64,000 bases of DNA from Hyphomicrobiales bacterium (GTDB taxonomy: Bacteria > Pseudomonadota > Alphaproteobacteria > Rhizobiales > Beijerinckiaceae), in contig CAKNFJ010000001.1 of the NCBI GenBank assembly GCA_930633495.1, positions 310,001-374,000 of the forward strand, given 5' to 3'. The notes beneath the pieces are model-generated. The model was given only the letters and a program-made list of their open reading frames with translations. It was not told the DNA's origin and made no database searches. Made by a program: the position numbers and the translations under genes. Below, one piece after another: positions 15,222-33,217 of this stretch (the first letter of the stretch is position 1; every line of letters starts with the position of its first letter).

Positions 15222-15301
15222 GCCAGGATGGTTTCCCTCTCCGTCCTTCTGGGGCGCTGCAATGCAACGCCGATCAAAAAGGCGGGGACAGCGCGCAGAA
15301 C

Positions 15302-15446
15302 CCTCTCCTGTAAGGAGAGGGCAGGGTGAGGTGTAGATCGTTGGACGCTTTAGCCGTGACCTGACGGCCGCGACGGTGAGGTTGACACCTCACTGGTCCA
15401 GGGGCCGACACCTCACCCCTACCCCTCTCCTTACAGGAGAGGGGTT
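15302..15446. repeat. Composite palindromic repeat, intergenic copy
   Basis: Two outer arms face each other: CCCTCTCCTGTAAGGAGAGGG followed by CAGGGTGAGGTGTAG on the left (given by its first 20 bases CCCTCTCCTGTAAGGAGAGG), and its inverted relative at 15411-15446. Bases 15395-15446 are the reverse complement of 28171-28222 inside dnaE2 with one mismatch in 52. The copy lies between the MFS gene and the 3' end of the convergent monooxygenase gene, where its hairpins could also stop transcription. Confidence 0.85.
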
Positions 15447-15501
15447 CCCGCGCCGCCCGTGCTTTCTGAAACCACGGTGATTGAGGGCGAAACCACAAAC
15501 G

Positions 15502-17826: not shown

Positions 17827-18061
17827 CGACGCCTCCATCCGGGGAACCGGCCGATCCGGCCTGGAAATTATTTTAAGCCTAAAATGATTTTGAACTCAAG
17901 AGCCATTATCGATCACCGCGCAGCGAATGGCCAAATCGGCAACACAAGCCGATAAGCCACGCATTGCGCTGCACAATCTTCGTTCCGGCAATTCGCAAAA
18001 ATCAAGAGGCTTGCAAATTGATTGAGACTTAAAATATATTCGAAGGCGGAGGTCGAAGCTC
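17827..18061. promoter_or_regulatory. Divergent promoter region with two candidate MarR operators
   Basis: The spacer is AT-rich relative to its flanks. TTTTAAGCCTAAAA at 17871-17884 is palindromic at 12 of 14 positions and lies about 45 bases from the monooxygenase start. On the other side GAGACTTAAAATATATTC (18025-18042) lies about 20 bases before the SDR start. Read outward, both contain CTTAAAATA. A MarR gene in the divergent operon is the obvious candidate to bind both. Inference from motif and context. Confidence 0.5.
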
Positions 18062-18817
18062 ATGACTCTGCAGGGACAGCACGCTCTGGTGACGGGGGGC
18101 GGACGAGGCATCGGCCGCGCCATCGCCGCCACACTGACGCAAGCCGGGGCCCGAGTCAGCATTCTCGGACGCGACGAGGCCATCCTGCGGGAGGCCGTTG
18201 CCGCCGGTGCCGCCGCCGATTGCGCCACCTGCGACGTGCGGGACGGAGCCTCCGTCGCGGCCGCGCTCGGCCATCTCTCCCGCGAGCACGGCTTCGACAT
18301 CGCGATCGCCAATGCGGGGGCGGTCGAGACCGGTCCGTTCATGCGCAGCGACAGCGAGCGCTTCCGCCGCATGTTCGACATCAACCTGATCGGCACGGTC
18401 AACCTGTTCCATGCCGTTCTGCCCGCCATGCTGGAGCGCCGGCGCGGCCGGCTGATCGCCATCGCCTCGACGGCCGGCCACCGCGGCTATGCCTATGTCA
18501 GCGCCTATGCGGCGGCGAAGCATGCCGTGATCGGGCTCACCAAGTCGCTGGCGCTGGAGACGGCGCGCAGCGGCGTCACCGTCAACGCCGTCTGTCCGGG
18601 CTATGCCGACACCGACATGGTCGCGGCCGGGCTCGACACCATCGCCACCAAGACCGGCAAGAGCCGCGAGCAGGCGCTCTCGGAGATGGTCAAGGACAAT
18701 CCGCAAGGCCGGCTGATCGCGCCCGAGGAGGTCGCGGCCGCCGTGCTCTATCTCTGTGGTCCCGGAAGCGACGCGGTCACCGGCCAGTCGCTGATGGTCA
18801 ATGGCGGGGAGTTCTGA
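18062..18817 (+). CDS. SDR-family dehydrogenase (3-hydroxyacyl-CoA type)
   Basis: A 251-residue classical short-chain dehydrogenase. The cofactor loop is VTGGGRGIGRAIA (TGxxxGIG), followed by NAGAVETG and the catalytic Ser/Tyr/Lys in IASTAGHRGYAYVSAYAAAKHAV. VCPGYADTDM follows the fold's nicotinamide region. Placed first in an operon with enoyl-CoA hydratase, acyl-CoA dehydrogenase and an aryl-CoA ligase, its likely job is oxidation of a 3-hydroxyacyl-CoA during breakdown of the dearomatised ring, as proposed for the SDR of the abm cluster. Its stop codon is one base from the MarR start. Confidence 0.88.
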   Translation: MTLQGQHALVTGGGRGIGRAIAATLTQAGARVSILGRDEAILREAVAAGAAADCATCDVRDGASVAAALGHLSREHGFDIAIANAGAVETGPFMRSDSERFRRMFDINLIGTVNLFHAVLPAMLERRRGRLIAIASTAGHRGYAYVSAYAAAKHAVIGLTKSLALETARSGVTVNAVCPGYADTDMVAAGLDTIATKTGKSREQALSEMVKDNPQGRLIAPEEVAAAVLYLCGPGSDAVTGQSLMVNGGEF

Positions 18818-18818
18818 G

Positions 18819-19370
18819 ATGGAAACGCCTTCCTCCACCCTGGTGCTCGACCGCGAGACCAAGGCGAGCGAACGCCCCGCCGACCACAAGGACGAACTGC
18901 GCCTGTGGCTGCGGATGCTGACCTGCTCGACCCTGATCGAGACGGAGATCCGCAACCGGCTGCGCGAGGAATTCAGGACCACGCTGCCGCGCTTCGACCT
19001 GATGGCACAGCTCGACAAGACCGCTGTCGGCATGACGGTGGGCGAGGTCTCGCAACGGCTGATGGTATCCAACGGCAACGTCACGGCGGTCGTGGCCGGG
19101 CTCGTGACCGACGGGCTCGTCGACAAGCGCCCGGCGCCGCAGGATCGCCGCGTGCAGATCCTCACCCTGACGGCGCAGGGCCGCAAGGCCTTCCGCGCCA
19201 TGGCCGAGCGGCACGAGGACTGGATCGCGGAGCTCTTTGCCGGCCTCGACCAGCCGCAGATCGCGCAGCTCTTCCGGCTGCTCGGAGAGACCAAGGCCTC
19301 GCTGCATCGCGCCATCGCCGGTCGGGCGAAGGATGCTGCCGACGAGGCCGCGAAGGGAGAATCCCGATGA
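18819..19370 (+). CDS. MarR-family transcriptional regulator
   Basis: A protein of about 183 residues. The ATG at 18819 has GGGGAG nearby and begins one base after the SDR stop; an earlier in-frame ATG inside the SDR gene is not used. The winged-helix domain runs from about residue 28 ([20 protein letters not shown]) through [29 protein letters not shown] (recognition helix) and [22 protein letters not shown] (the wing with its DRR signature). Aromatic-acid MarR proteins usually sense the CoA thioester or free acid and repress the neighbouring operon. Its stop overlaps the start of the enoyl-CoA hydratase gene (ATGA), so translation is coupled. Confidence 0.92.
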
Positions 19371-20200
19371 CCATCGCCAACGCCACCACCCTCCCGCTCG
19401 CCGGCTTCGAGCCGCAGCATTTCAGCCTGTCCGTCGCCGGCAAGGTCGCGACCGTGACGCTGAACCGGCCTGACAAAAAGAATCCGCTGACCTTCGCAAG
19501 CTACCGCGAACTCACGGATTTCTTCCTCGCAGCCCAGAAGGAGGAAGCGGTCAAGGCGATCGTCGTGACCGGCGCCGGCGGCAATTTCTCCTCGGGCGGC
19601 GACGTCTTCGAGATCATCGGCCCGCTGGTCGCGATGGAGACCAAGGATCTGCTGAAGTTCACCCGCATGACCGGCGAGCTGGTCAAGGCGATGCGCGCCG
19701 GCCCGCAGCCGATCGTCGCGGCGATCGACGGGGTCTGCGCGGGCGCCGGCGCCATCGTCGCCATGGCCTCTGATCTCCGCATCGGCACGGCCGGCAGCAA
19801 GATCGCCTTCCTGTTCAACCGCGTCGGGCTCGCCGGCTGCGACATGGGCGCCTGCGCGATGCTGCCGCGCATCATCGGCCAGGGCCGCGCCGCCGAGCTG
19901 CTCTATACCGGCCGCGTGCTCAGGGGGGAGGAGGCCGAGCGCTGGGGCTTCCTCAACCGGCTCTGCGCCCCCGAAGCCGTGCTGCCCGAAGCGCAAGCCC
20001 TCGCAGCCGAGCTGGCGGATGGACCGACCTTCGCCAACGCCATGACCAAGCGCATGCTGGAGATGGAATGGGCGATGTCGGTCGAAAGCGCCATCGAAGC
20101 GGAAGCCGTGGCGCAGGCGCTGTGCATGCAGACCGAGGATTTCGCCCGCGCCTATCACGCCTTCGCCAACAAGCAGAAGCCGGTCTTCGAGGGCAACTGA
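19367..20200 (+). CDS. Enoyl-CoA hydratase/isomerase family protein
   Basis: A 277-residue crotonase-fold enzyme starting at the ATG that overlaps the MarR stop codon. Core motifs are [36 protein letters not shown] (first oxyanion-hole strand), and [25 protein letters not shown] (second oxyanion-hole region), with [21 protein letters not shown] in the active-site lid. The catalytic Glu positions of classical hydratases are not obvious, so isomerase or ring-hydrolase activity is possible. In the abm cluster a hydratase of this type acts on the non-aromatic CoA ester. It is followed after one base by the acyl-CoA dehydrogenase. Confidence 0.9.
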
Positions 20201-20201
20201 C

Positions 20202-21410
20202 ATGAATAGCGCTCCCCGCCTCGGCCTCGACATCCTCGGCGACACGCTGGACTGGCCGTTCTTCGAGGAGCGGCATCGCGCCTTCGCTGCCGAGCTTTCC
20301 GGCTGGGCCGATTCCCATCTCGCCGCTCTCCCCCATGACGATGTCGATGAGGCCTGCCGGGCGCGTGTGGCGGCTCTGGGCGCGGCGGGCTTCCTGAAGG
20401 CCGCCGTGCCGGCCGCCTATGGCGGGCTCAACGACAAGCTGGACGTGCGCACGCTCTGCCTCGCCCGCGAGATCCTGGCCGCGCATGACGGCCTTGCCGA
20501 TTTCTCCTTCGCCATGCAAGGGCTCGGCACCGGCTCGATCAGCATCGCCGGCTCCGAGGCGATGAAGCGGCGCATCCTGCCCGATGTCGCCACCGGCAAG
20601 CGCATCGCCGCCTTCGCCCTGTCCGAGAAGGAGGCGGGCTCCGACGTCGCCGCCATGGCGACGACCGCCACGCCAGACGGTGCATCCCATGTCCGCATCG
20701 ACGGCGAGAAGAGCTGGATCTCCAATGGCGGCATCGCCGACCATTTCGTCGTCTTCGCCCGCACCGGCGAGGCGCCGGGCGCGCGCGGGCTCTCGGCCTT
20801 TCTGGTCGAGGCCGATACGCCCGGCCTGACCATCGCCGAGCGGATCGAGGTGATCGCGCCGCATCCGCTCGCGACCCTGCGCTTCGAGGGCTGCCGGGTG
20901 CCGATCGAGAACCGCATCGGCGGACCGGGCGACGGCTTCAAGGTCGCGATGGCGACGCTCGACATCTTCCGCTCGACAGTCGGCGCGGCCGCGCTCGGCT
21001 TCGCAAGGCGGGCGCTGCACGAGACGCTGGCCCATGCCAATGGCCGCAAGCTCTTCGGTGGCACGCTCGGCGATCTCCAGCTCTCGCAGGCGGCGATCGC
21101 CGACAGCGGCGCGCAAGTCGATGCCGCCGCCCTCCTCGTCTACCGCGCCGCCTGGACCAAAGACCGCGGCGCCGCCCGCGTCACCCGCGAAGCGGCGCTG
21201 GCCAAACTTGTCGCGACCGAGAACGCCCAACGCGTGATCGACCGGGCCGTCCAGATCCATGGCGGCCTCGGCGTCACCAAGGGCGTCAAGGTGGAGGAGC
21301 TCTACAGGGAGATCAGGGCGCTGCGCATCTACGAGGGCGCCTCGGAAGTCCAGAAGGTCGTGATCGCGCGCGACCTGCTGAAAGCACATGCCGGAAGAGC
21401 ACATCTTTAG
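20202..21410 (+). CDS. Acyl-CoA dehydrogenase
   Basis: A 402-residue FAD enzyme with the three-part family layout: N-terminal helical domain ([18 protein letters not shown]), middle beta domain with [15 protein letters not shown] and [20 protein letters not shown], and C-terminal helical domain with [54 protein letters not shown] (its ends QIHGGLG and [14 protein letters not shown]). The catalytic base is probably the Glu of YEGASE. It starts one base after the hydratase stop and precedes the ligase, consistent with beta-oxidation of the dearomatised product. Confidence 0.93.
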
Positions 21411-21472
21411 AGACGGATTCACCGCTCAGGTCGATCCAGCCTGAGCGGCTCCGGCTCTTGCAGGGGAACGCA

Positions 21473-23113
21473 ATGACAGCAACCGGATTTGCGAGATCAG
21501 GGCATCAAGACAGCTTCGCGCGGGACAATCTGCCGCCGCGCGAAAGCTGGCCCGATCTGAGACTGGAAGAGGCAGGGCTGAGCTACCCGGAACGGCTGAA
21601 CTGCGTCGCAGAACTGCTCGACCGGCACATCGCGGAGGGGCACGGCGGCCGGACGGCCGTGCTCGCTCCCGATCTGCACTGGAGCTATGCGGACCTTGCC
21701 GACAAGGTGAACCGCATCGCCAATGTGCTGACCCGCGATCTCGGCATGGTCAGCGGCAACCGCGTGCTGCTGCGCGCCGGCAACACGCCGATGATGGTCG
21801 CCGCCTATCTCGCCGTCATCAAGGCCGGCGGCGTCGCGGTCGCGACAATGCCGATGCTGCGGGCGGGCGAGCTCGCCTATCCGCTGCGCAAGGCGAAGAT
21901 CGCGCTGGCGCTCTGCGACCACCGCCTGACCGGCGAGCTTGAAGCCGCGAAGGCACAGGTGCCGGAACTCGCGCGCATCGTCGCATTCGGCAATGCCGGC
22001 AGCGAGCTCGAAGCGCTGATGGCACAGCCAGGCTACGAGCTTTTCGAAGCCTGCGACACAGCGCGCGACGATGTCTGCCTGATCGCCTTCACCTCCGGCA
22101 CCACCGGCGAGCCGAAGGGCACGATGCATTTCCATCAGGACATGCTGGCGATCTGCGACTGCTACGGCGCGCGCGTGTTGAAAGCCTCTCCGGAGGACCG
22201 CTTCACCGGCTCGCCGCCGCTGGCCTTCACCTTCGGGCTCGGCGGGCTCGTGCTCTTCCCGATGCGGATCGGCGCGGCGATGGTGCTGCCCGAGAAGGCC
22301 GGCCCGGCCGACCTCCTCGACGCCATCGAGCGCTACAAGGTCAGCGTCGTCTTCACCGCGCCGACCGCCTATCGCGCCATCCTCGACAAGCTCGACGGGC
22401 GCGACATCGCTTCCCTCAGGATCTGCGTTTCGGCCGGCGAGGCCCTGCCCAAGGCGACTTTCGACGCCTGGCAGGCGCGGACGGGCATGCCGCTGCTCGA
22501 CGGCATCGGCGCGACCGAGATGCTGCACATCTTCATCGGTGCGCCGCGCGAGGCAATCCGGCCGGGCTCGACCGGGATTCCGGTGCCGGGCTACGAAGCC
22601 AAGATCGTCGACGCCGAAGGCAGGGAGGTGCCGGACGGCACGCCCGGGCGTCTCGCGGTGCGCGGGCCTACCGGCTGCCGCTATCTCGCCGACCCGCGAC
22701 AGGCGGTCTATGTCCTCGATGGCTGGAACGTCACCGGCGACACCTATCTGCGCGATGCGGACGGCTATTTCTGGTATCAGGCCCGCTCCGACGACATGAT
22801 CATCTCGGCCGGCTACAACATCGCCGGCCCGGAGGTCGAAGCCTGCCTGCTGACGCATGAGGCGGTGGCGGAATGCGGCGTCGTCGGCGCGCCCTGCCCC
22901 GAGCGTGGCCAGATCGTGAAGGCTTATATCGTGCTGCGTGCCGGCGTCTCCGGCGATGAAGCGCTGGTCAAGGCGTTGCAGGACCATGTGAAGGCCAGTA
23001 TCGCGCCCTACAAGTATCCGCGCGCCATCGAATTCGTCGACGCCCTGCCGAAGACGGCGACGGGCAAGCTGCAACGCTTCGCTCTGCGCCAGATCGCGCG
23101 TGGCGAGACCTGA
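21473..23113 (+). CDS. Aryl-CoA ligase (benzoate/2-aminobenzoate-CoA ligase family)
   Basis: A protein of about 546 residues of the AMP-forming ligase superfamily. It starts at the ATG preceded by CAGGGGAACGCA; five codons upstream another ATG exists without a ribosome-binding site. Motifs are the P-loop AFTSGTTGEPKGTMHFHQ, the aromatic-pocket region SPPLAFTFGLGG, YEAKIVDAEGREVPDG, the hinge-region SDDMIISAGYNIAGPEVE, and the C-terminal catalytic Lys in KTATGKLQRF. SPPLAFTFGLGGLV is the pattern of benzoate-CoA and 2-aminobenzoate-CoA ligases. It supplies the aryl-CoA substrate for the divergent monooxygenase/reductase; anthranilate is the favoured acid by context. Confidence 0.9.
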   Translation: MTATGFARSGHQDSFARDNLPPRESWPDLRLEEAGLSYPERLNCVAELLDRHIAEGHGGRTAVLAPDLHWSYADLADKVNRIANVLTRDLGMVSGNRVLLRAGNTPMMVAAYLAVIKAGGVAVATMPMLRAGELAYPLRKAKIALALCDHRLTGELEAAKAQVPELARIVAFGNAGSELEALMAQPGYELFEACDTARDDVCLIAFTSGTTGEPKGTMHFHQDMLAICDCYGARVLKASPEDRFTGSPPLAFTFGLGGLVLFPMRIGAAMVLPEKAGPADLLDAIERYKVSVVFTAPTAYRAILDKLDGRDIASLRICVSAGEALPKATFDAWQARTGMPLLDGIGATEMLHIFIGAPREAIRPGSTGIPVPGYEAKIVDAEGREVPDGTPGRLAVRGPTGCRYLADPRQAVYVLDGWNVTGDTYLRDADGYFWYQARSDDMIISAGYNIAGPEVEACLLTHEAVAECGVVGAPCPERGQIVKAYIVLRAGVSGDEALVKALQDHVKASIAPYKYPRAIEFVDALPKTATGKLQRFALRQIARGET

Positions 23114-23160
23114 CCTCCAGACCAACCCGAGCCAAACGGCCGAAACCGAGGCAAGCATTC

Positions 23161-23568
23161 ATGTCCGAACTTCCGCAATCGCGCGCCATCCTGCCCGAAG
23201 GCTGGCCGCAGCCCCGCGGCTATGCCAACGGCATGGTGGCGGAGGGCCGCGTGCTGGTGACGGGCGGCCTCGTCGGCTGGAACGCCGAGGGTGTCTTCGC
23301 GCAAGGCTTCATCGGCCAGCTGCGCCAGGCCTTCCTCAACATCAAGGCGGTGGTCGAGGCCGGCGGCGGGCGGGTCGAGGATATCGTGCGCCTGACCTGG
23401 TACGTCACCGACATCGCGACCTATCGCGCCAGCCTCAAGGAAATGGGGCCGGTCTATCGCGAGGTCTTCGGGCGGCATTTTCCGGCGATGGCGGTGGTCG
23501 CGGTGACCGCGCTGGTCGAGCTGGAGGCGCTGCTGGAGATCGAGGCGACGGCGGTGGTCGCGCGCTAG
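23161..23568 (+). CDS. RidA family protein of the aromatic cluster
   Basis: A 135-residue YjgF-like protein, last gene of the operon, 47 bases behind the ligase. Landmarks are RGYANGMVAEGRVLVTGGLVGWN, QLRQAFLNIKAVVEAGGGRVEDIVRLTWYVTDI (its ends QLRQAFLNI and VTDI) and FPAMAVVAVTALVELEALLEIEATAVV. It has no Arg at the position corresponding to the substrate carboxylate-binding residue of RidA (F-P-A-M here versus F-P-A-R in the gene at 12003), so it is probably not a classical RidA. In a 2-aminobenzoyl-CoA pathway it might hydrolyse the imine/enamine of the reduced amino-ring product. Confidence 0.87.
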   Translation: MSELPQSRAILPEGWPQPRGYANGMVAEGRVLVTGGLVGWNAEGVFAQGFIGQLRQAFLNIKAVVEAGGGRVEDIVRLTWYVTDIATYRASLKEMGPVYREVFGRHFPAMAVVAVTALVELEALLEIEATAVVAR

Positions 23569-23575
23569 CTCGCGC

Positions 23576-23683
23576 GTCATGCTCGGGCTTGACCCGAGCA
23601 TCTCATGACATGACGGCTCGGGAGCCTCTTTCTGAAAGAGATTCTCGGGTCGGCGCCCCGTCGCCCGAGAATGACGGCCGGGT
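23576..23683. repeat. Palindromic element between convergent genes
   Basis: ATGCTCGGG (23579-23587) and CCCGAGCAT (23593-23601) form a perfect hairpin, followed by further palindromic parts (CTTTCTGAAAG; TTCTCGGGTC against CGCCCGAGAATGACG). It lies between the RidA-like gene and the 3' end of cysN and probably doubles as a bidirectional terminator. Confidence 0.6.
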
Positions 23684-23686
23684 AAC

Positions 23687-25336
23687 CTAAATCCCCGCGC
23701 CGTCTTGCAACGTCCCGATAGGCGCCTTGCTCCAGAGCCGCATGTGGAGCGCCCGCAGGGCCGGGCGCAGCAGGATATCGCCGAAGGCCAGCGCCAATGA
23801 AACCGGCGCATTCCGGGTCAGCGCAAACGCCGCCGCGAACAGCCCCATTGTGCTCAGCACCCGCCAGCTCACGGCCGCGAGCCAGGCTCGACGATCGGGC
23901 GTGCCCCGCCGGCCGACGACCCGGATAACGTTGCGCCGCAAACGGGTGAGCGCGCCGCCCTCGACCACCACCTGCCCGGCGGATTCCTCGCCCGGCTCGA
24001 CAAAGCCGAACGCGACCGTCTCGTTACTGATGCGATCGATCAGGATGAAGCCACCGAGCTCGTGGCTCTGCGCATAGGGCAGCGAGACCAGCGGCCGGTC
24101 GAGCCGGAGCGTCACGAGGCCGATGCCGTTCATGCGCAGGCTCTGCGCCGGGAGCGGCTTGAACCCCTCGATATCGATGCTGTGGTGCAGGGTCTCGACC
24201 GTCGCGCCGGCGCTCTGCGTCGCAAGCTTGACCAGGAACTGACCGCCCTCGAGCATGGCGCGCTCGCCCGTCCAGAGCAGGCGCGCCCGGAGCCCGCGGC
24301 TGACAGGCAATGCGGCGCCCGCGGCGACGATGACATCTCCGCGCGAGATGTCGATGTCGTCCTCCAGCGTCAGCGTCGCCGCCTGACCGGCAGCAATCTG
24401 CGCACCGTCGCCGGACGCGCCGATGATCCGGGCGATCCGGCTCCTGCGGCCGGATGGCAGCGCCAACACCGGGTCGCCGACGCGCGCCCGGCCGCTGACC
24501 GGCGTACCGGCATAGCCGCGAAAGTCGAGGTCGGGCCGGTTGACCCATTGCACCGGCAGGACGAAGCCGTTCTCGCGCGGGGCCGGAGCGTCAAGCGCCA
24601 CGCTTTCGAGCAAGGGCAGCAGCGCCGGCCCGTCATACCAGGACATGGCGGCAGACCGGGCCATGACGTTGTCGCCGTCGCGTGCCGAGACCGGGACGAA
24701 GCGGACCGAGGCGAAACCGAGATCCTTCACCGCCGCGCGATAATCGGCCGCGATCTGCTCGAAGACCGCCTCGTCATAGTCGACGAGGTCCATCTTGTTG
24801 ATCGCGACCACGACATGGCGGACGCCGACCAGCGAGACGATGAAGGAATGGCGCCGGGTTTGCGGCAGCAGGCCCTTGCGCGCATCGACGAGGATGATGG
24901 CGAGATCCGCGGTGGAGGCCCCGGTCGCCATGTTGCGGGTATACTGCTCGTGGCCGGGCGTGTCGGCGACGATGAAGCTGCGCTTCTCCGTGGCGAAATA
25001 GCGATAGGCGACATCGATGGTGATGCCCTGCTCGCGTTCCGCCGAAAGGCCGTCGACCAGCAGCGCGAAATCGAGCAGCGCACCTTGCGTCCCGAATCTG
25101 CGGGAATCGTTGTCCAGCGCGGAAAGCTGATCCTCGAAGACGGCGCCGGCCTCGTAGAGCATCCGGCCGATCAGCGTCGACTTGCCGTCGTCGACCGAGC
25201 CGCAGGTGATGAAGCGCAGCAGCGAATGCTGGCCGGTTTCGCTGACGCGGGGCGTATCATTCGCCGGAAACGGGGTCTGCGCCGGTTTCGGCGCCTTTTT
25301 CGTCTTCGTCAGATTCTTGGCGAGCGCGAAGCCCAT
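23687..25336 (-). CDS. cysN: Sulfate adenylyltransferase subunit 1 with C-terminal DUF2061-like segment
   Basis: A 549-residue GTPase subunit of ATP sulfurylase, which with CysD makes adenosine 5'-phosphosulfate. The GTPase domain has SVDDGKSTLIGRML, DTPGHEQYTRNM and NKMD, followed by two beta-barrel domains (to about residue 465). A fused CysC kinase would normally add about 180 residues with its own P-loop; it is absent. Instead residues about 480-540 (AVSWRVLSTMGLFAAAFALT, then SLALAFGDILLRPALRALHMRLW) have the W-R-x-x-T...E/D-x-x-x-K/R-x-x-x-x-x-x-H-x-R-x-W pattern of DUF2061, a two-helix membrane domain. Loss of the kinase fits the APS-type CysH next door, which does not need PAPS. Start overlaps the cysD stop (TGATG). 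Confidence 0.93.
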   Translation of the reverse strand: MGFALAKNLTKTKKAPKPAQTPFPANDTPRVSETGQHSLLRFITCGSVDDGKSTLIGRMLYEAGAVFEDQLSALDNDSRRFGTQGALLDFALLVDGLSAEREQGITIDVAYRYFATEKRSFIVADTPGHEQYTRNMATGASTADLAIILVDARKGLLPQTRRHSFIVSLVGVRHVVVAINKMDLVDYDEAVFEQIAADYRAAVKDLGFASVRFVPVSARDGDNVMARSAAMSWYDGPALLPLLESVALDAPAPRENGFVLPVQWVNRPDLDFRGYAGTPVSGRARVGDPVLALPSGRRSRIARIIGASGDGAQIAAGQAATLTLEDDIDISRGDVIVAAGAALPVSRGLRARLLWTGERAMLEGGQFLVKLATQSAGATVETLHHSIDIEGFKPLPAQSLRMNGIGLVTLRLDRPLVSLPYAQSHELGGFILIDRISNETVAFGFVEPGEESAGQVVVEGGALTRLRRNVIRVVGRRGTPDRRAWLAAVSWRVLSTMGLFAAAFALTRNAPVSLALAFGDILLRPALRALHMRLWSKAPIGTLQDGAGI

Positions 25337-26238
25337 CAGAAATAGCCTTCCTGCTTCTTCTGCTCCATCGAGCCGGAGCCGTCATGGTCGATGACGCGGC
25401 CCTGCCGCTCCGAGGATCGGGACGCGCGCATCTCGGCGATGATGTCGGTGAGACTCGCCGCTTCGCTCTCCACCGCCCCGGTCAGCGGGTAGCAACCCAG
25501 CGTGCGGAAGCGAACCATGCGGGTTTCGATCACCTCGCCGGGGCGCAGTTCCATGCGCTCGTCGTCGCGCATGATCCAGGCGCCGTCGCGCTGCACCACG
25601 GGGCGGGGCGCGGCGAAATAGAGCGGCACGACGGGGATGTTCTCCAGCGCGATGTAGTCCCAGACATCGCGCTCGGTCCAGTTCGAGAGCGGAAAGACCC
25701 GGAAGCTCTCGCCGCGATGCTTGCGGGTGTTGAAGAGCTGCCAGGGCTCCGGCCGCTGGTTCTTCGGGTCCCAGCGATGCTCCTCCGAGCGCAGTGAGAA
25801 GACCCGTTCCTTGGCCCGGCTCTTCTCCTCGTCGCGGCGCGCGCCACCGAAAGCGGCGTCGAACTTGTGGAGGTCGAGCGCCTGCTTCAACCCTTGCGTC
25901 TTCATCACGTCGGTATGGATGCGCGAGCCCGAGGCGAACGGGCTGATGCCGGCCTCGACGCCCTCGCGGTTTATATGGACGATCAGGTCGAGCCCGAGGC
26001 GCTTCGCCGTCTCGTCGCGGAAGGCGATCATGTCGCGGAACTTCCAGGTCGTGTCGACATGGAGCAGCGGGAAAGGCGGCCGGGCCGGGTAGAACGCCTT
26101 CATGGCGAGATGCAGCAGGACGGCGGAGTCCTTGCCGATCGAATAGAGCAGCACCGGCTTGTCGCAGGTCGCCACCACCTCGCGGATGATGAAGATGGCT
26201 TCGGCCTCGAGCTTCTGGAGATGGCTGAGCTGGATCAT
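25336..26238 (-). CDS. cysD: Sulfate adenylyltransferase subunit 2
   Basis: A 300-residue ATP-pyrophosphatase-type enzyme that adenylates sulfate. It contains the PP-loop [54 protein letters not shown] (its ends FDAAFGG and RVFS), [15 protein letters not shown] and [16 protein letters not shown]. The ATG at 26238 overlaps the cysH stop codon (ATGA) and starts [13 protein letters not shown], the family's usual N-terminus; an open frame further upstream is the antisense of cysH coding. The last residue overlaps the cysN start. CysD and CysN act as a cytoplasmic heterodimer. Confidence 0.96.
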
Positions 26239-27044
26239 GCGGTCACCTGTGCCGGCGCGGGCTTGGCGCGCGCCAGTGTTCCGTCCGGCCCGACATGGAG
26301 GCCGCATTCCTTGGCGGCATCGTCCTCCCACCACCAGCGCCCAGCCCGCTCGGGCTCGCCGGGGCGAATGGCGCGGGTGCAGGGCTGGCAGCCGATCGAG
26401 ACAAAGCCGCGTGCATGGAGCGGGTTGAGCGGCACGGCATTCTCTTCGGCGAAAGCCAGCGCGCGCTCACGCGTCCAGTCGATCAGCGGACTGGCCTTGA
26501 CGAGACCGCGCGCGGCATCGGCCTCCGCGAGGGGAACAGCGCCGCGCGCGGCCGACTGGTCGGCCCGCAGGCCGGTCAGCCAGATATCGGCACCGGCGAG
26601 CGCCCGGCCGAGCGGCTCGACCTTGCGGATGCCGCAGCAGGATTTGCGGGCGTCGCGCGAGGCGTAAAAGCCATTGATGCCGTTCTGGCGGACATAGAGC
26701 TCGACCGCCTCGTGGCGCGGGTAATAGGGGCGGATCAGGATACCGTAACGCGCCTCCGTCTCCTGCCAGAGTGCATAGACCTCCGGAAAGAGCCGGCCCG
26801 TGTCGAGCGTGGCGAAGGTCACCGGCAGTTTCGCCGTCGCGATGAAGTGGGTCAGCACCTGGTCTTCGAGGCCGAAGGAGGTGGTGAAGACTACCGGACC
26901 TTGCGCGCTCGCCACGATGCCGGCGAGACGTTCGACAACTCCCGCCTCGGCGAACGCCCCATTGAGCGCAGCCGCACGCTGCGCTAGACGCACCTCTGCC
27001 GGCACGGTCGTCACGGGTTCTTCCGAGCCGAGGCTGCTCGCCAT
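26235..27044 (-). CDS. cysH: Adenylylsulfate (APS) reductase, CysH family
   Basis: A protein of about 269 residues that reduces activated sulfate to sulfite with thioredoxin. The PP-loop-like region reads [16 protein letters not shown], then [11 protein letters not shown]. It has both cysteine pairs of the iron-sulfur type, [12 protein letters not shown] and [21 protein letters not shown]; plant- and alphaproteobacteria-type enzymes with this CC/CxxC set carry a 4Fe-4S cluster and use APS directly. This explains why no CysC kinase is needed nearby. The ATG at 27044 ([10 protein letters not shown]) was chosen over one 21 codons earlier. It is the first gene of cysH-cysD-cysN; sulfite reductase is not in the window. 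Confidence 0.95.
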
Positions 27045-27277
27045 GGTCCTGGCCACCTGTTCGGTAAATCGAACGAACCACTTATACCCATGGCGGCTAA
27101 GGTTCAATTTACAGCAGGTAGCGTGTTTTTTCTTATTTCACTTCTATTGGAGAAGTTTGTTTTGGCGGACGCTTCCGACGCCGCCGGGAGCGGTGCTCCG
27201 GAATGGATCCCGGATCTCCCTGCGGTCGCCCGGGATGACCCGCGCGGAAGTGGAAAGACAGAACAAGGCACTACCCT
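27045..27277 (-). promoter_or_regulatory. Upstream region of the cys operon with a palindrome and a REP-like element
   Basis: ACTTCT (27140-27145), ATTGG and AGAAGT (27151-27156) form an inverted repeat about 100 bases upstream of cysH in an AT-rich patch; on the minus strand it is not followed by a T run, so it looks more like an operator than a terminator. At 27200-27240 lies GGATCCCGGA...CCCGGGATGACC, related to the element at 4650-4757. No named regulator can be assigned. Confidence 0.4.
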
Positions 27278-30200
27278 TCAATGGAAATCCCGCGACTTCG
27301 GCAGGATTCGCACATTGCGTGGATGGCGGTGGCGCGGCAGCGGCGGGTTCTTCAGCTCGTCGACCGGCATGGGGACTTCAGCGCGATGCGTGTCCGAGAG
27401 CGAGAGCAGATCGATCGAGCGATCGACGATGCGCTGGGCCATGAGATGGACGACGCCCTCGACGCTCTTCTGCACCCGGCCCTCGACCAGCATGAGCCGT
27501 GCGCCCATGACCTCGCGGCGGAAGCGCTCGAACAAGCGCGCCCAGATCACGACATTGGTGATGCCGGTCTCGTCCTCCAGCGTGACGAAGATGGCGTTGC
27601 CCTTGCCCGGCCGCTGGCGCACCAGCACGATCCCGGCCGTGCGGACGAAGGCCGCATCGGGCTTCGCCTCGGTCTCGGCGCAGCTCAGGATGCCCTCACG
27701 GCGGAAGCGCGGGCGCAAGAGCTGCATCGGATGCCCCTTCAGCGAGAGCCGCACCGTCTGATAGTCGGCGACGATATGCTCGGCCAGCGGCATGGTGGGC
27801 AGCGCCATGCTCCGTTCCGAACCCAGCTCGCGCGCCTTCGCCGCCTGGAACAACGGCAGAGCGGAATCGTCCGGCAAACGCCGCACGGCCCAGAGCGCCT
27901 CGCGGCGATCAAACCCGAGCGAGCGGAAGGCATCGGCATCGGCGAGCAGGCGCATGGCGCGCGCAGGGAGATTGGCGCGGCGCATCAGTTCCTCGACGTC
28001 GCGATAGGGGCCGCCTGCTTCCCGTTCCCGGGCGATGGCCTTGCCCCAATCCTCCCTGAAGCCATCGATCTGGCGGAAGCCGAGGCGGAGTGCGAAGGGG
28101 TGTTTCTTCACTCGTTCACATGTCGCGGCTTTTGATCCATGCGCCACATTTCGAACGGACACGCTGGAAGAACCCCTCTCCTGTAAGGAGAGGGGTAGGG
28201 GTGAGGTGTAGGCCCCTGGACCAGCGAAGTGCCGCCTTTCGGCTGCGCTGCGGTGAGGTCTCACCACATCGTCCAAGGGCCTACCCCTCACCCTGCCCTC
28301 TCCCTCCGGGAGAGGGTTCCCCGCGCTTTTCTTGGCAGGGTCATCATTACCGTCCCCGACCGTCTCCAGCCCGTTATCCCAAGCACTCAGATTCACATCG
28401 GCCGGTCTCGGTTCGACCCCACCATTCTCTTCCGCCTCCCGCACGATTTGGGCCGGAGCGTAGAAACCCATCGGCTGGGAATTCAGCAACGCACAGGCGA
28501 AAGCGGCCGGATGATGCTTCTTCAGATAGGAGGAGATGTAGACCAGCTTGGCAAAGGAAGCCGCGTGGCTCTCCGGGAAGCCGTAGCTGCCGAAGCCCCT
28601 GATCTGGTCGAAGCAGCGCTGGGCAAAATCGCGCTCATAGCCGCGCGCGACCATGCGCTCGACCATCATGTCCTGAAAATGATGGATGGTGCCGGCATTG
28701 CGGAAGGTCGCCATCGCCTTGCGCAGGCCGTTGGCTTCGATATCGGAGAATTTGGCGGCCACCATGGCGAGCTTCATGGCCTGCTCCTGAAAGAGCGGTA
28801 CGCCCTTGGTCTTGTTCAGGACTTCGAACAGCTCGTCCTTATCGCCCTTGCCGGGTGCGGGAGACGGATAGGTTACCTCCTCGATCCCCGCCCGCCGCTT
28901 CAGATAGGGATGGACCATGTTGCCCTGGATCGGGCCGGGGCGGACGATCGCAACCTGAATAACGAGATCGTAGAATTCGCGCGGCCTGAGCCGCGGCAGC
29001 ATGTTCATCTGCGCGCGGCTCTCGACCTGAAAGACGCCGAGCGACTTGCCCTCGCAGAGCATGTCGTAGGTCGCTGCGTCGCCATCCGTGAAATCGGCGA
29101 GCTGGTAAGGTTTTCCGCCATTGGCGGCGATCAGATCGAACGCCTTGCGAATGCAGGTCAGCATGCCCAGCGCGAGCACATCGACCTTCATCAGCTGAAG
29201 TTCGTCGATATCGTCGCGGTCCCATTCGATGAAGGTGCGGTCCTCCATCGCGGCGTTGCCGATCGGCACCGTCTCGTCGAGGCGCCCGCGCGACAGCACG
29301 AAGCCGCCGACATGCTGCGAGAGATGGCGCGGATAGCCCAATAGCCGGGTGGCGAAATCGACGGCGCGGCGGATCGTCGGATTGGTCGGATCGAGCCCGG
29401 CCTGGCGAACGCGGGCATCGCCGATCTCGCTGCCCCAGCTTCCCCAATTCGTATCGGCGATGCGGGCGGTAACGTCCTCGGTCAGGCCCAGCACCTTGCC
29501 GGCCTCGCGAATGGCGCTGCGCGGCCGGTAATGGATCACGGTGGCGGCGATACCGGCTCGTTCGCGGCCATATCGCCAATAAATCCACTGGATCACCTCC
29601 TCGCGCCGCTCATGCTCGAAATCAACGTCGATATCGGGCGGCTCCTTACGCTCGGTGGAAATGAAGCGCTCGAACAGCACGTCGTTATCGGCCGGATCGA
29701 CCGCGGTGATGCCGAGCACATAGCAGACGGCGGAATTGGCGGCCGAGCCGCGGCCCTGGCAGAGGATGCCCTTGCTCTCGGCGAATTCGACGATCTGCCG
29801 GATTGTCAGGAAATAGCGGGCGTATTCGAGCTTCCCGATCAGATCGAGCTCCTTCGCCAGCAGCTTCTCGACCTTCTCTGGAACGCCATCCGGATAGCGG
29901 ATCAGGCAGCAGCGGCGGACCAGCTCAACCAGCCAATCTTGATCCTTCCAGCCGGGCGGGATCGGCTCGTCGGGATATTCGTATTTCAGCTGGCCGAGAT
30001 CGAATTCGATGCGAGAGAAGAGGGCTTGCGTCTCGGCGATGGCCTCGGGCGCATCGCGGAAGAGGCGGACCATCTCCTGCGGCAGCTTGAGGTGGCGCTC
30101 GGCATTGGATTCAAGCAGGCGCCCGGCCCGCTCGATGGTGGTGCCCTCGCGGATGCAGGTCAGCACGTCCTGCAGGTCGCGCTGCGCGATGGAATCGTAG

Positions 30201-30901
30201 AGCGTGTCATTGGTCGCGATCAGCGGCGTGCGGGTCGCGGCAGCGATGGCCTTGAGCCGCGCGAGACGGCGGCGGTCATCGCCGCGACGGTGCATGCTGG
30301 CGGCGAGCCAGACCGCGCCGGGCGCGGCATCGTCGAGCCGGGCGAGGGTTTCGGAGAGTCCGTCGAGACTGCGGCCCGGCATCAGGATCAGCAGCAGGTC
30401 GCGGGCATCGTTGAGCAGATCGTCGAGGACGAGGTGGCATTCGCCCTTCTTCACGCCGTCCTTCAGGTTGCCGTGGCTAAGCAGGCGGCAAAGCCGGCCC
30501 CAGCCGGCGCGATTGGCCGGGTAGACGACGATGTCGGGCGTCCCGTCGGCGAAGACGAGGCGAGTGCCGGTCGCGAGCTTGAAGCGCTCCGCCTTCGCCT
30601 TCATCTGCGCGGGCGTGAAAGGCAAGGCGGCGAATTCAGGGTTCTCGACCCAGTAATATTCGCCGGGGCTGCCGCCTTCCCGGACCTTGTCGGGCGACGG
30701 CAAACCATCCTCCCGCAGATGCTTCAGCGCCGCCCAGGCGCGCACCACGCCGGCCACCGTATTGCGGTCGGCGATGCCGATGCCGGCATATCCGAGCAGC
30801 AGGGCCGTCAGCACCATATGCGGCCCAGGCGAAGCGCCGCGCAGGAAGGAAAAATGCGAAGCCGCAACGGGTTCGGCAAAGGGGTTCGCAATCCGATTCA
30901 T
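27278..30901 (-). CDS. dnaE2: Error-prone DNA polymerase DnaE2 with in-frame repeat insertion
   Basis: A 1,207-residue C-family polymerase; relatives are usually about 1,050-1,150 residues. The PHP domain opens with FSFLRGASPGPHMVL and GIADRNTVAGVVRA; the palm has PPDIDVDFEHERREEV near residue 420; later come QVESRAQMNMLPRL, VSRG/HVGGFVLSRG and the C-terminal OB fold (RPGKGNAIFVTLEDETG). Between VNLSAWDNGLE and HPFALRLGFRQIDGFRE, where family members are contiguous or nearly so, about 80 extra residues occur; residues about 862-911 are encoded by a palindromic repeat (28171-28318) and look unnatural (SPLPLSLQERG, NPLPEGEGRVRG). The frame stays open, so the protein may still be functional. It starts in an ATGA overlap with imuB and belongs to the SOS cassette. 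Confidence 0.93.
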   Translation of the reverse strand: MNRIANPFAEPVAASHFSFLRGASPGPHMVLTALLLGYAGIGIADRNTVAGVVRAWAALKHLREDGLPSPDKVREGGSPGEYYWVENPEFAALPFTPAQMKAKAERFKLATGTRLVFADGTPDIVVYPANRAGWGRLCRLLSHGNLKDGVKKGECHLVLDDLLNDARDLLLILMPGRSLDGLSETLARLDDAAPGAVWLAASMHRRGDDRRRLARLKAIAAATRTPLIATNDTLYDSIAQRDLQDVLTCIREGTTIERAGRLLESNAERHLKLPQEMVRLFRDAPEAIAETQALFSRIEFDLGQLKYEYPDEPIPPGWKDQDWLVELVRRCCLIRYPDGVPEKVEKLLAKELDLIGKLEYARYFLTIRQIVEFAESKGILCQGRGSAANSAVCYVLGITAVDPADNDVLFERFISTERKEPPDIDVDFEHERREEVIQWIYWRYGRERAGIAATVIHYRPRSAIREAGKVLGLTEDVTARIADTNWGSWGSEIGDARVRQAGLDPTNPTIRRAVDFATRLLGYPRHLSQHVGGFVLSRGRLDETVPIGNAAMEDRTFIEWDRDDIDELQLMKVDVLALGMLTCIRKAFDLIAANGGKPYQLADFTDGDAATYDMLCEGKSLGVFQVESRAQMNMLPRLRPREFYDLVIQVAIVRPGPIQGNMVHPYLKRRAGIEEVTYPSPAPGKGDKDELFEVLNKTKGVPLFQEQAMKLAMVAAKFSDIEANGLRKAMATFRNAGTIHHFQDMMVERMVARGYERDFAQRCFDQIRGFGSYGFPESHAASFAKLVYISSYLKKHHPAAFACALLNSQPMGFYAPAQIVREAEENGGVEPRPADVNLSAWDNGLETVGDGNDDPAKKSAGNPLPEGEGRVRGRPLDDVVRPHRSAAERRHFAGPGAYTSPLPLSLQERGSSSVSVRNVAHGSKAATCERVKKHPFALRLGFRQIDGFREDWGKAIAREREAGGPYRDVEELMRRANLPARAMRLLADADAFRSLGFDRREALWAVRRLPDDSALPLFQAAKARELGSERSMALPTMPLAEHIVADYQTVRLSLKGHPMQLLRPRFRREGILSCAETEAKPDAAFVRTAGIVLVRQRPGKGNAIFVTLEDETGITNVVIWARLFERFRREVMGARLMLVEGRVQKSVEGVVHLMAQRIVDRSIDLLSLSDTHRAEVPMPVDELKNPPLPRHRHPRNVRILPKSRDFH
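28171..28318. repeat. Composite palindromic repeat inside dnaE2
   Basis: The left arm AACCCCTCTCCTGTAAGGAG... and the right arm ending ...CTCCGGGAGAGGGTT are inverted relatives (each with its own small hairpin and then a GGGGTGAGGTGTAGGCCC-like stretch). Bases 28171-28222 match the reverse complement of 15395-15446 with one mismatch in 52. Here the element is translated in frame within the polymerase gene. Confidence 0.88.
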
Positions 30902-32445
30902 GCGAAGAGCCCGTGTAGGAACCAGCGCGGCGGAGCGCTATCGGCTTCGTAGAAACCGGCCCGATAGAGCCAGAAGCGGCGCCCTTGCGCATCCTCGACC
31001 CGGTAATAGTCGCGCATTGGCTCGTCGCTGCCGTCGCGCCACCATTCAGGTGCGATGCGCTCGGGGCCTTCGGCGCGAGCGACGTCATGGGTGAGGCGGC
31101 GCCAGCGGAAGCGGATCGGCGGTCCATCAGGCACTTCCGCGATGGCCTCGACCGGCTGCGGCGGCTCGAAGAGCTGGAGCGGGCGGGCTGGCGGTTCCTG
31201 CGGCTCGGGTGCAGACCATGCCACCTCCGGCAGCGGCGCGGCGGCCGAGAGCGCCTTGGCGGCGCGGACGGGGTGATGCGTGTCCTGCGCTGCGAAGCGC
31301 AGTACCCGGTCGCGGCCGAAGCGGGTGACGAGCCGATCGACCAGATCCGCCACCGCCTCCTGCTCGACCGCGCGGCCGTCGAGGCTGTGCTGGGGCGTGT
31401 CGAGCGGCTCGCAAAGCGGTACGGCGAGCTTGATCGCGTCGAAGCCGAAGCCGGGATCGAGCGGATCGGCCAGGGTCTCGATGCGCTCGCGATAGAGCCG
31501 GAGTAGCGCCGCAGAGTCGCGCGAGGGCCTGCCAGTCTCGATGGCGAGGCGCCGCACGGCACCGTCACTGCGGAAGAAGCCGATCTCGAAGACGCGCCCG
31601 CCTTGCCCGCGCGCCTCCAGCACGCGGGCCGCCTCCCCGATCAGCCGGACGACCACCGCCTCGAGGCTCACTGTGTCGGCGAATGGTTCGGCGAAATGGC
31701 GCTCGACCACGCAGTCCGGCGGCGGGCGCAGCGGCGTGATGCGCCGGTCCTCCTGGCCGAGGATGCGCCGGAGCTTGACCGCCAGCGCCTCCCCGAAACG
31801 CGCCGAAAGCGTCTCCGAGGGGCGCTCCGCGAGATGATCGAGCGTCTTGAGGCCGGCGCGGGAGAGCGCGATCACGGTCTCGGCATCGGTGTCCAGCGCG
31901 GCGACCGGCAGCGGACGCAACAGCGCTTCCTCCTGCCCCGGTGGGATGATGCCGCCGCGGCCATGACGGGCGCAGGCGCGGGCGGCGTCAGGCGTGCCGG
32001 CGATGGCGGCTCTCAGGCGCCTCAGGCCGATGCGCTGCATGGAGCGCCCAGCCAGCATCCCAAGCCCCGCCTCGCCGCCGAAAAGATGGGCACAGCCGGT
32101 GATGTCGAGCATCAGGCCATGGGGCTCGTCGAGCGCGACCAGTGGGGTGAAACGGTCGCAGAACCCGGCGAGCGCTTCGAGGAATTCGCGATCTGCCTGC
32201 GGCTCGGCCTCCTGCGCGACGAGATCGGGAATGCGGGCGCGGGCATCGGCCAGCGTCATCCCGCGCGTCAGGCCGAGATCGACGGCGCGCTGGTCGCAAT
32301 CGACGAGGCGCAGCGCATTGCCCTGCATCTCGATCAGCCCATGCGGCCTCTCAGCCGGCGCGCCGGAGGCCGGAATCACGCCCGTCCGCCGCAACCTGTC
32401 CGTCGCCAGGAAGGGGAACCAGAGGGCGAGATAGCGGCGCGGCAT
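30898..32445 (-). CDS. imuB: ImuB, catalytically inactive Y-family polymerase homologue
   Basis: A protein of about 515 residues. The start MPRRYLALWFPFLATDRLRR is the family N-terminus; a longer frame of 35 codons is not used. ImuB resembles Y-family polymerases (little-finger and palm remnants: PHGLMLDITGCAHLFGGEAGL; RHGRGGIIPPGQE; GLKTLDHLAERPSETLSARFG) but lacks the acidic catalytic set and instead bridges DnaE2 to the sliding clamp. ARPLQLFEPP near residue 405 is a plausible beta-clamp-binding motif. Its start lies 95 bases inside the imuA reading frame, and its stop overlaps dnaE2 (ATGA), so the three proteins are translationally linked. Confidence 0.92.
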   Translation of the reverse strand: MPRRYLALWFPFLATDRLRRTGVIPASGAPAERPHGLIEMQGNALRLVDCDQRAVDLGLTRGMTLADARARIPDLVAQEAEPQADREFLEALAGFCDRFTPLVALDEPHGLMLDITGCAHLFGGEAGLGMLAGRSMQRIGLRRLRAAIAGTPDAARACARHGRGGIIPPGQEEALLRPLPVAALDTDAETVIALSRAGLKTLDHLAERPSETLSARFGEALAVKLRRILGQEDRRITPLRPPPDCVVERHFAEPFADTVSLEAVVVRLIGEAARVLEARGQGGRVFEIGFFRSDGAVRRLAIETGRPSRDSAALLRLYRERIETLADPLDPGFGFDAIKLAVPLCEPLDTPQHSLDGRAVEQEAVADLVDRLVTRFGRDRVLRFAAQDTHHPVRAAKALSAAAPLPEVAWSAPEPQEPPARPLQLFEPPQPVEAIAEVPDGPPIRFRWRRLTHDVARAEGPERIAPEWWRDGSDEPMRDYYRVEDAQGRRFWLYRAGFYEADSAPPRWFLHGLFA

Positions 32446-33217
32446 GGTCTGTATGGGAAGCCAGTCTGTCGGATCGGTCAAAAAGGCTGCGTTCCGCGAA
32501 AGATCGTCGGTCACGGTCCCACTCCACACGCCACTCACGCTCCGCCGCACCGCCGCGTTGGCGCAGCAATCTCAGGGAAAAGGCCGGGGCGCCCGGGGCA
32601 TTCGCCTCCAACGCCCGCGAGGCGAGCGCCCGGACCTGCCAGCGCGTGCGGGCCGCGCTCGGCGCCTGCGCCGCCGCGACGCGCAGCAGCAGGACCGGCA
32701 CGCCCGAGCCTTCCGCCGCCAGGGCGAGACGACGGCTCGCCGTCAGATCGAAGGAGCGCGCCTCGCCCCAGGGCTCGATCAGCACGGCGCCCAGCGCCGG
32801 GCAGCGCGCCGCCTCGGCGCCGGCCCGCAGCACGCCCTCGCCGTCGCGCGCCCGCACCAGCAGGAGGCGAGACGGGTCGAGGCCGAGCTCGTTCAGGCCC
32901 GGCGCATGCAGCCGCCCGGCCTCGGCATCGACGAAATCTTGCCGTGCCCAGAGGATCGGCCGTTCGGCGGCCTTTTCCTCCGCCTGCCCTGCCCGCAGGG
33001 CGAGCCCCAGCGCAAAGCCGGTCGCGGCGGAAAGATCGGCAACCTCGGCGGCATAGATCTCATGTAGCGCCGCGCGTGCCAGGCCGCCATTCAGCGTCTC
33101 GTCCAGTGAGGCCACTCCCAAGCCGATCCGCCGGCCCAAGGCCGGGCTGCTCCGCAAGGCCATCTCGGCGTGGCTGCGGAGCAGATCGGATAGGGTCGGG
33201 GCGGCGGCTGCGGTCAT
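32351..33217 (-). CDS. imuA: ImuA, SOS mutasome accessory protein
   Basis: A protein of about 288 residues related to RecA/SulA-like proteins. Landmarks are RRIGLGVASLDETLNGGLARAALHEIYA (its ends RRIGLG and LHEIYA), ATGFALGLALRA, RPILWARQDF, GLDPSRLLLVRARD and, at the end, EREWRVEWDRDRRSF and HAAPLSRPLVPLPGD. The Walker A lysine of true RecA is not present. The start MTAAAAPTLSDLLRS was chosen over an upstream ATG whose extension is arginine-rich and would overlap the LexA box. A LexA box lies 16 bases upstream of this ATG, so the cassette imuA-imuB-dnaE2 is damage-inducible. Confidence 0.92.
   Translation of the reverse strand: MTAAAAPTLSDLLRSHAEMALRSSPALGRRIGLGVASLDETLNGGLARAALHEIYAAEVADLSAATGFALGLALRAGQAEEKAAERPILWARQDFVDAEAGRLHAPGLNELGLDPSRLLLVRARDGEGVLRAGAEAARCPALGAVLIEPWGEARSFDLTASRRLALAAEGSGVPVLLLRVAAAQAPSAARTRWQVRALASRALEANAPGAPAFSLRLLRQRGGAAEREWRVEWDRDRRSFAERSLFDRSDRLASHTDHAAPLSRPLVPLPGDGQVAADGRDSGLRRAG

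What the first reader, a model, noticed from the sequence alone, without database searches (positions are those of the whole stretch)
28171..28318. Palindromic intergenic repeat translated in frame inside dnaE2
The element matches an intergenic copy at 15395-15446 (51 of 52 bases in the overlap) and has the same two-arm inverted structure, yet it sits in the open frame of the DnaE2 polymerase, adding about 50 residues (with flanks about 80) at a point where family members are normally contiguous. This recalls Rickettsia palindromic elements that insert in frame into genes. The protein stays open, so a mobile palindrome may be evolving new coding sequence, or the polymerase may be impaired.
Basis: partly seen in the sequence, partly recalled or inferred. 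Interest (0 to 1): 0.8.

Follow-up and report, generated by a model that had tools for sequence, protein, structure and literature searches.

The report
Palindromic repeats colonise a polymerase loop
In this Bosea genome a 148-base palindromic repeat, found at about 40 places, sits in frame inside the gene for the error-prone polymerase DnaE2, at a spot where other Bosea strains carry unrelated repeats or none, and it is most likely tolerated as a floppy, nearly neutral loop.

Summary
Window 28171-28318 is one of about 40 copies of a palindromic repeat (F1) in its genome, translated in frame inside dnaE2 (27278-30901, minus strand). The host genus is Bosea.

The insert is neither unique nor randomly placed. 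At the same linker, between the polymerase fingers and the helix-hairpin-helix domain, other Bosea carry F1, unrelated palindromic families, stacks of two, or only short linkers. Of 37 Bosea genomes, 19 have a repeat there, 16 have none and 2 were not parsed.

Codons on both sides are under purifying selection (dN/dS 0.07-0.29), while the linker shows pN close to pS. AlphaFold2 predicts the insert to be disordered. An impaired or newly functional polymerase is not supported; a tolerated landing site is.

Different repeats in one loop also occur in Bosea UvrC, penicillin-binding protein 1C and a GT28-type glycosyltransferase. DNA polymerase III alpha, UvrC and PBP1C are also on a published list of Rickettsia proteins carrying palindromic elements. 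Whether the sites coincide is untested.

Repeats inside genes, DnaE2 included, are already in print for other bacteria. New here are the multi-family landing sites and the overlap of host proteins.

The parts
27278..30901 (-). dnaE2, error-prone DNA polymerase, 1207 aa
   Evidence: NF004225 at 1359 bits, cut-off 939; Pfam polymerase, finger, HHH and OB domains
28100..28363 (-). DnaE2 linker TVGDG...KKH, codons 847-934, that holds the insert
   Evidence: predicted disordered between two short strands
28171..28318 (.). F1 palindromic repeat, 148 nt, read in frame on the minus strand
28172..28196 (.). outer hairpin with loop TGTAA in the plus strand
   Evidence: fold
28296..28316 (.). outer hairpin at the other end of F1
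   Evidence: fold
28319..28326 (.). CCCCGCGC, intact right-hand extension of the F1 end
   Evidence: against the intergenic copies
15299..15446 (-). second F1 copy in the window, intergenic, 81% identical over 148 nt
30898..32550 (-). upstream ORF, weakly similar to Y-family DNA polymerase IV (below cut-offs), inferred imuB-like; overlaps the dnaE2 start by 4 nt
   Evidence: the imuB label is inference

Best explanation
A 148-base dispersed palindromic repeat is translated in frame in a linker of dnaE2, and it most likely persists because this linker is predicted to be a disordered loop that tolerates almost any stop-free, in-frame insert, so that unrelated repeat families would keep landing, stacking, decaying and being exchanged there. 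Shown by calls or sequence: the repeat and its copies; the open frame; other families at the same linker in other Bosea; purifying selection on both flanking parts with a near-neutral linker; absence from near relatives; more than one repeat family in one loop of UvrC, PBP1C and a GT28-type glycosyltransferase. Predicted: disorder of the insert between two short strands. Inferred: that insertion is largely blind to site and selection removes inserts that break the frame or a domain, leaving permissive loops as landing pads; that linker alleles move between strains by homologous recombination; that DnaE2 stays active. Unknown: what mobilises the repeats.
For: Same linker, different families: of 37 Bosea genomes, F1 in 8, F2/F2b in 5, F3 in 1, F4 in 4, F5 in 1 (contig ends in it), none in 16, 2 unparsed. 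F2/F2b, F3 and F4 are dispersed repeats in the genomes searched. Stacks and nesting: P0010, P0014, P0117. Purifying selection among 8 F1 carriers (28 pairs): dN/dS 0.11-0.23 before and 0.07-0.29 after the linker, linker pN/pS 0.53-1.26. AlphaFold2: model residues 843-925 (P0001 850-932) below pLDDT 50, between strands 837-840 and 929-932. Near-identical neighbours with 219 nt of repeats versus 21 nt in the linker (G031, G009). Other loops colonised by more than one type of insert.
Against: No activity was measured. The arms of F1 in dnaE2 differ at only 2.6-2.8% of sites, also at synonymous positions, so the insert as DNA does not drift freely; intergenic arms are conserved too (6-8%). The linker alleles alternate on the tree with at least 39 changes, part of which must be loss or exchange rather than new landings. 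Disorder is a prediction from 43 sequences. How strongly these loops are enriched over other loops was not measured.
Confidence: 0.8

Rival explanations
1. The inserts change DnaE2 activity or partner binding and are selected, for example by tuning mutagenesis, as Di Nocera et al. speculated for repeats in repair genes.
For: Hosts include DNA repair proteins (DnaE2, UvrC); the same idea is voiced in PMC3733652.
Against: Linker amino acids evolve near neutrally and different strains have unrelated sequences or none at the site. Hosts also include PBP1C, CobN, an acyltransferase and a glycosyltransferase.
Confidence: 0.08
2. The hairpin acts as nucleic acid, for example slowing transcription or translation of dnaE2, or as a chromosomal binding site, and its coding is a by-product.
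For: Very stable RNA fold, z = -10.6; arms conserved also at synonymous sites.
Against: Intergenic copies show conserved arms too, so this is a property of the element family and not of dnaE2; 16 of 35 parsed Bosea genomes have no repeat at the site.
Confidence: 0.09
3. The insert is an assembly artefact or dnaE2 is a decaying pseudogene.
For: Repeats can break contigs: G015 dnaE2 is split at the element. L115 (B. vaviloviae SD260) has a repeat hairpin followed by a frame shift. A second DnaE2-like gene without insert lies on contig C2.
Against: The window lies in a 5.1-Mb contig. The same site and frame recur in other assemblies, including the one-contig genome G010. Codons downstream of the insert are under purifying selection.
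Confidence: 0.03

Closest known systems
Rickettsia palindromic elements (RPE), in particular RPE-4/6/7 as listed in the R. japonica genome paper PMC3767692
   Same: Palindromic repeats of about 100-150 bp that occur between genes and, in frame, inside genes, at solvent-exposed places; host list includes DNA polymerase III alpha, UvrC and PBP1C.
   Different: Other genus and GC-rich sequence; sequence kinship to RPEs not tested. In Bosea the occupants of one site are of several families and many close relatives lack any insert, whereas in that paper all Rickettsia orthologs examined carried inserted DNA at the same sites.
GTAG and CGTC REP elements inside genes, Di Nocera et al. 2013, PMC3733652
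   Same: Palindromic repeats entirely within ORFs, including DnaE2, uvr and recB genes; flexible loops named as one possible reason. F2/F3 of other Bosea show the CGTC tag, an ATCCCGGG stem and a CCA tail.
   Different: F1 is 148 nt with GCGGGGAACC ends, not a 20-40 bp tagged unit. The paper found coinciding sites only for recB of two Xanthomonas and different sites otherwise.
MITE
   Same: Short, non-coding, inverted ends, dispersed.
   Different: No target-site duplication seen (0 of 19); no partner transposase identified, and only RAYT was looked for.

Membership tests
RPE-like in-frame palindromic insert (works like) | palindromic repeat of about 100-150 bp, dispersed, also translated in frame inside a conserved gene | tested here: met
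Rickettsia palindromic element (membership) | sequence homology to RPE families of Rickettsia | not tested
   no Rickettsia sequence was compared
[quoted passage not shown]
   148 nt, ends GCGGGGAACC; definition from PMC3733652
GTAG REP (F1) | RAYT transposase in the genome | tested here: not met
   PF01797: no match in the own genome, found in 5 of 14 control genomes
CGTC REP (F2/F3 of other Bosea) | CGTC tag, 8-9 bp stem beginning AT, CCA tail | tested here: met
   L026 and L016 linkers read by eye
CGTC REP (F2/F3 of other Bosea) | loop of 4-5 bases | tested here: not met
   loop of about 13-14 bases in L026 and L016; the paper notes odd loops in Bradyrhizobium
MITE | target-site duplication | tested here: not met
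   0 of 19 copies with a repeat of 3 or more, shuffled mean 0.27; ends set by pattern, so low power
DnaE2 error-prone polymerase | curated family model over cut-off with polymerase domains on both sides of the insert | tested here: met

The most novel reading that the evidence does not exclude
Alphaproteobacteria share a small set of landing-pad proteins: loops of DNA polymerase III alpha-type enzymes, UvrC and PBP1C have been colonised over and over, in frame, by unrelated palindromic repeats in lineages as far apart as Bosea and Rickettsia, so that noncoding repeats are a recurring source of new protein sequence in the same few places.
Probability: 0.35. Interest if true: 0.8.

Novelty: new variant of a known kind. 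Interest (0 to 1): 0.62.

Why it matters
The R. japonica paper left open whether different palindromic elements at one protein site mean a hot spot or one old insert that diverged (PMC3767692). Bosea offers many close relatives in which unrelated families occupy the same loop and near-identical neighbours lack any insert, so hot spots can be tested directly. It also supplies natural alleles with and without 50-130 extra residues for asking how much repeat-derived sequence a working polymerase, nuclease or transpeptidase tolerates, and how noncoding DNA becomes protein.

Tried and rejected
Unique to this strain: rejected. Conserved domain insert: rejected, the linker differs completely between relatives. 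RAYT in this genome: none found. Rfam family in 15200-28400: none at gathering threshold. Target-site duplication: none seen.

'Only DnaE2 is hit': I leaned to this because all 19 passing proteins (148 candidates) and all 10 (75 candidates) were DnaE2, and dropped it. Those searches see only proteins of similar length, and one search missed PBP1C and CobN that carry F2b. F1 also sits in a GT28-type glycosyltransferase and F2b in PBP1C, UvrC, an acyltransferase and CobN. In the own genome I found F1 in a recognisable gene only in dnaE2 (by eye); F2, F2b and F3 copies there were not examined in full.

Selection on the peptide of the arms: 7 of 7 distinct arm changes in 8 dnaE2 copies are synonymous against 19 of 40 in 23 intergenic copies. 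The 8 copies were picked by a peptide pattern and other DnaE2 carry substitutions there, so this is not claimed. Several F1 gains in dnaE2: not claimed; similar right flanks suggest one insertion plus loss or exchange.

Other long open frames over F1: of nine scanned with Pfam, two are the glycosyltransferase, two have a domain away from the element, five have no family; a tenth (L202) was not scanned. Of 20 long frames over F2b, four are real hosts, seven were scanned with NCBIfam and 13 were judged by eye only; two lie upstream of argS.

Rows dropped or unparsed: P0017 and P0034 of 127 proteins, and the short P0019 from the tree (124 rows); G013 and G036; L129; 1 of 30 glycosyltransferase, 3 of 30 PBP1C and 14 of 30 UvrC loci; 17 of 40 intergenic places in the arm comparison. 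Family tags are peptide patterns and at least one (F4 of P0039) is doubtful. The 120 proteins are best hits to an insert-bearing query, so their insert frequency is no population estimate. F5, LRAERSNP-type and PPPGGEELEVGG-type inserts were not counted genome-wide; that they are repeats is inferred from folding and recall.

Full report
What is there. The window carries dnaE2 on the minus strand (27278-30901, 1207 aa), recognised well above cut-off as an error-prone DNA polymerase. Inside it, 28171-28318 is a strongly palindromic unit, called F1 here. F1 aligns at 41 non-overlapping places in the loci fetched from its genome, dnaE2 included, some of them part copies; 26 besides dnaE2 are full length. 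Full intergenic copies run from about GCGCGGGGAACC to GGTTCCCCGCGC; some have one terminal hairpin replaced by a different hairpin.

Host. Genomes with the same genus code have contigs whose lengths equal those of named records of Bosea robiniae, B. thiooxidans and B. psychrotolerans, and most named protein hits are Bosea. The window is therefore taken as Bosea.

The site in relatives. I read the DnaE2 linker between ...DNxLE and ALRLGFRQ in 37 Bosea genomes. F1 sits there in 8, F2 and/or F2b in 5, F3 in 1, F4 in 4 and F5 in 1 whose contig ends within it; 16 have no repeat and 2 were not parsed. P0010 and P0014 hold half an F2 next to F1, and P0117 has F5 nested in F4. F2/F2b, F3 and F4 recur at many places in the genomes searched (F4 has none in the own genome and F3 none in G011). 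F2 and F3 share their termini but are read in different frames. Outside Bosea, 51 of 58 parsed loci have the short form; of the 7 longer ones Hephaestia caeni (L149) has a palindromic insert of its own, and the others were not shown to be repeats.

History. On a tree of 124 DnaE2 proteins built without the linker, insert states change at least 39 times, with inserts and empty linkers alternating between close relatives. G031 and G009 are nearly identical next to the linker, yet one has 219 nt with repeats and the other 21 unrelated nt (the ungapped comparison loses register about 200 nt to the left). Among 47 proteins of one clade the four columns most tied to linker type lie 3-9 residues before it. 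I infer that linker alleles are exchanged by homologous recombination. Similar right flanks suggest that F1 entered dnaE2 once.

Selection. Among 8 F1 carriers (28 pairs), about 500 codons before and 270 after the linker have dN/dS of 0.11-0.23 and 0.07-0.29, while the linker has pN/pS of 0.53-1.26. The arms of F1 are conserved also at synonymous sites, and its centre differs at 36% of sites. Intergenic arms are conserved too, so this looks like a property of the element; whether structure or gene conversion causes it is open.

Structure. AlphaFold2 on 1200 residues with 43 aligned sequences (mean pLDDT 76.6) gives pLDDT below 50 for model residues 843-925 (DnaE2 850-932), between short strands at 837-840 and 929-932. 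The match to E. coli DNA polymerase III alpha ends at its residue 817 and a weak second match resumes at 834. The insert is thus predicted to be a disordered excursion between fingers and helix-hairpin-helix domain.

Reading frame. Of 26 full intergenic copies in the own genome, 6 are open in the frame used by dnaE2. Among the 150 F1 matches listed over 61 Bosea genomes, all 10 in dnaE2 are stop-free against 35 of 140 others, two of which are the glycosyltransferase below (counted by eye).

Other hosts. F1 lies in frame in a GT28-type glycosyltransferase in G015 and G027, before its C-terminal domain. In 29 of 30 parsed loci this linker holds F1 in 2, F2b-type sequence in 8, LRAERSNP-type sequence in 6, and 14-18 residues without repeat in 13, among them the own genome. 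F2b lies in frame in a dihydrolipoamide acyltransferase between lipoyl and E3-binding domains, in UvrC, in PBP1C and in CobN. The PBP1C loop has 20-26 residues in 22 of 27 parsed loci, F2b in 4 and F2 in 1; of 16 parsed UvrC loops 5 hold F2b-type and 7 PPPGGEELEVGG-type sequence, the rest degenerate or other. These hosts were found before I read the Rickettsia list.

What is known. Di Nocera et al. 2013 (PMC3733652; passages, one section and half the discussion read) report REPs inside genes of several species, DnaE2, uvr and recB among them, name flexible loops as one reason and mutator effects as another, and find coinciding sites only for recB. The R. japonica paper (PMC3767692; passages and one section read) lists DNA polymerase III alpha, UvrC and PBP1C among hosts of RPE-4/6/7 and leaves hot spots against common origin open, leaning to common origin. 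A survey of bacterial DNA polymerases (PMC12926913) does not use the words insertion, linker, repeat or Bosea in its main text. In the rows shown by my searches (open-licence papers, often only the top of longer lists) I saw no paper on repeats inside Bosea genes.

Verdict. Best supported is a tolerant loop repeatedly colonised by unrelated palindromic repeats and kept as near-neutral sequence. An impaired or improved polymerase is not supported, though activity is untested. The kind is known; the multi-family landing sites and the overlap of hosts with Rickettsia are the new part, and the latter needs a position-by-position test.

Noticed in passing
window 45788-61498 (minus strand): A 5236-aa open frame built of near-identical tandem units: six copies at 732-base spacing and five at 741-base spacing, 98-99% identical.
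   Followed up: no
L083 (G000:C2:352600-357200): A second DnaE2-like gene (54% identical) on another contig has a short linker without a repeat.
   Followed up: partly
L060, L061, L071-L074, L076, L079, L080: Some F1 copies have one terminal hairpin replaced by a different hairpin, as if ends were exchanged between elements.
   Followed up: no
L115, from about 5416: In Bosea vaviloviae SD260 the linker holds a single repeat hairpin and the dnaE2 frame shifts after it; natural breakage or assembly error.
   Followed up: partly
L238, L240, L245, L249, L193, L194: In-frame palindromic repeats in an E2 acyltransferase, UvrC, PBP1C, CobN and a GT28-type glycosyltransferase of other Bosea.
   Followed up: partly
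L149 (Hephaestia caeni): A DnaE2 from a sphingomonad carries its own palindromic insert beginning CGTCATGCCGG at the same linker.
   Followed up: partly
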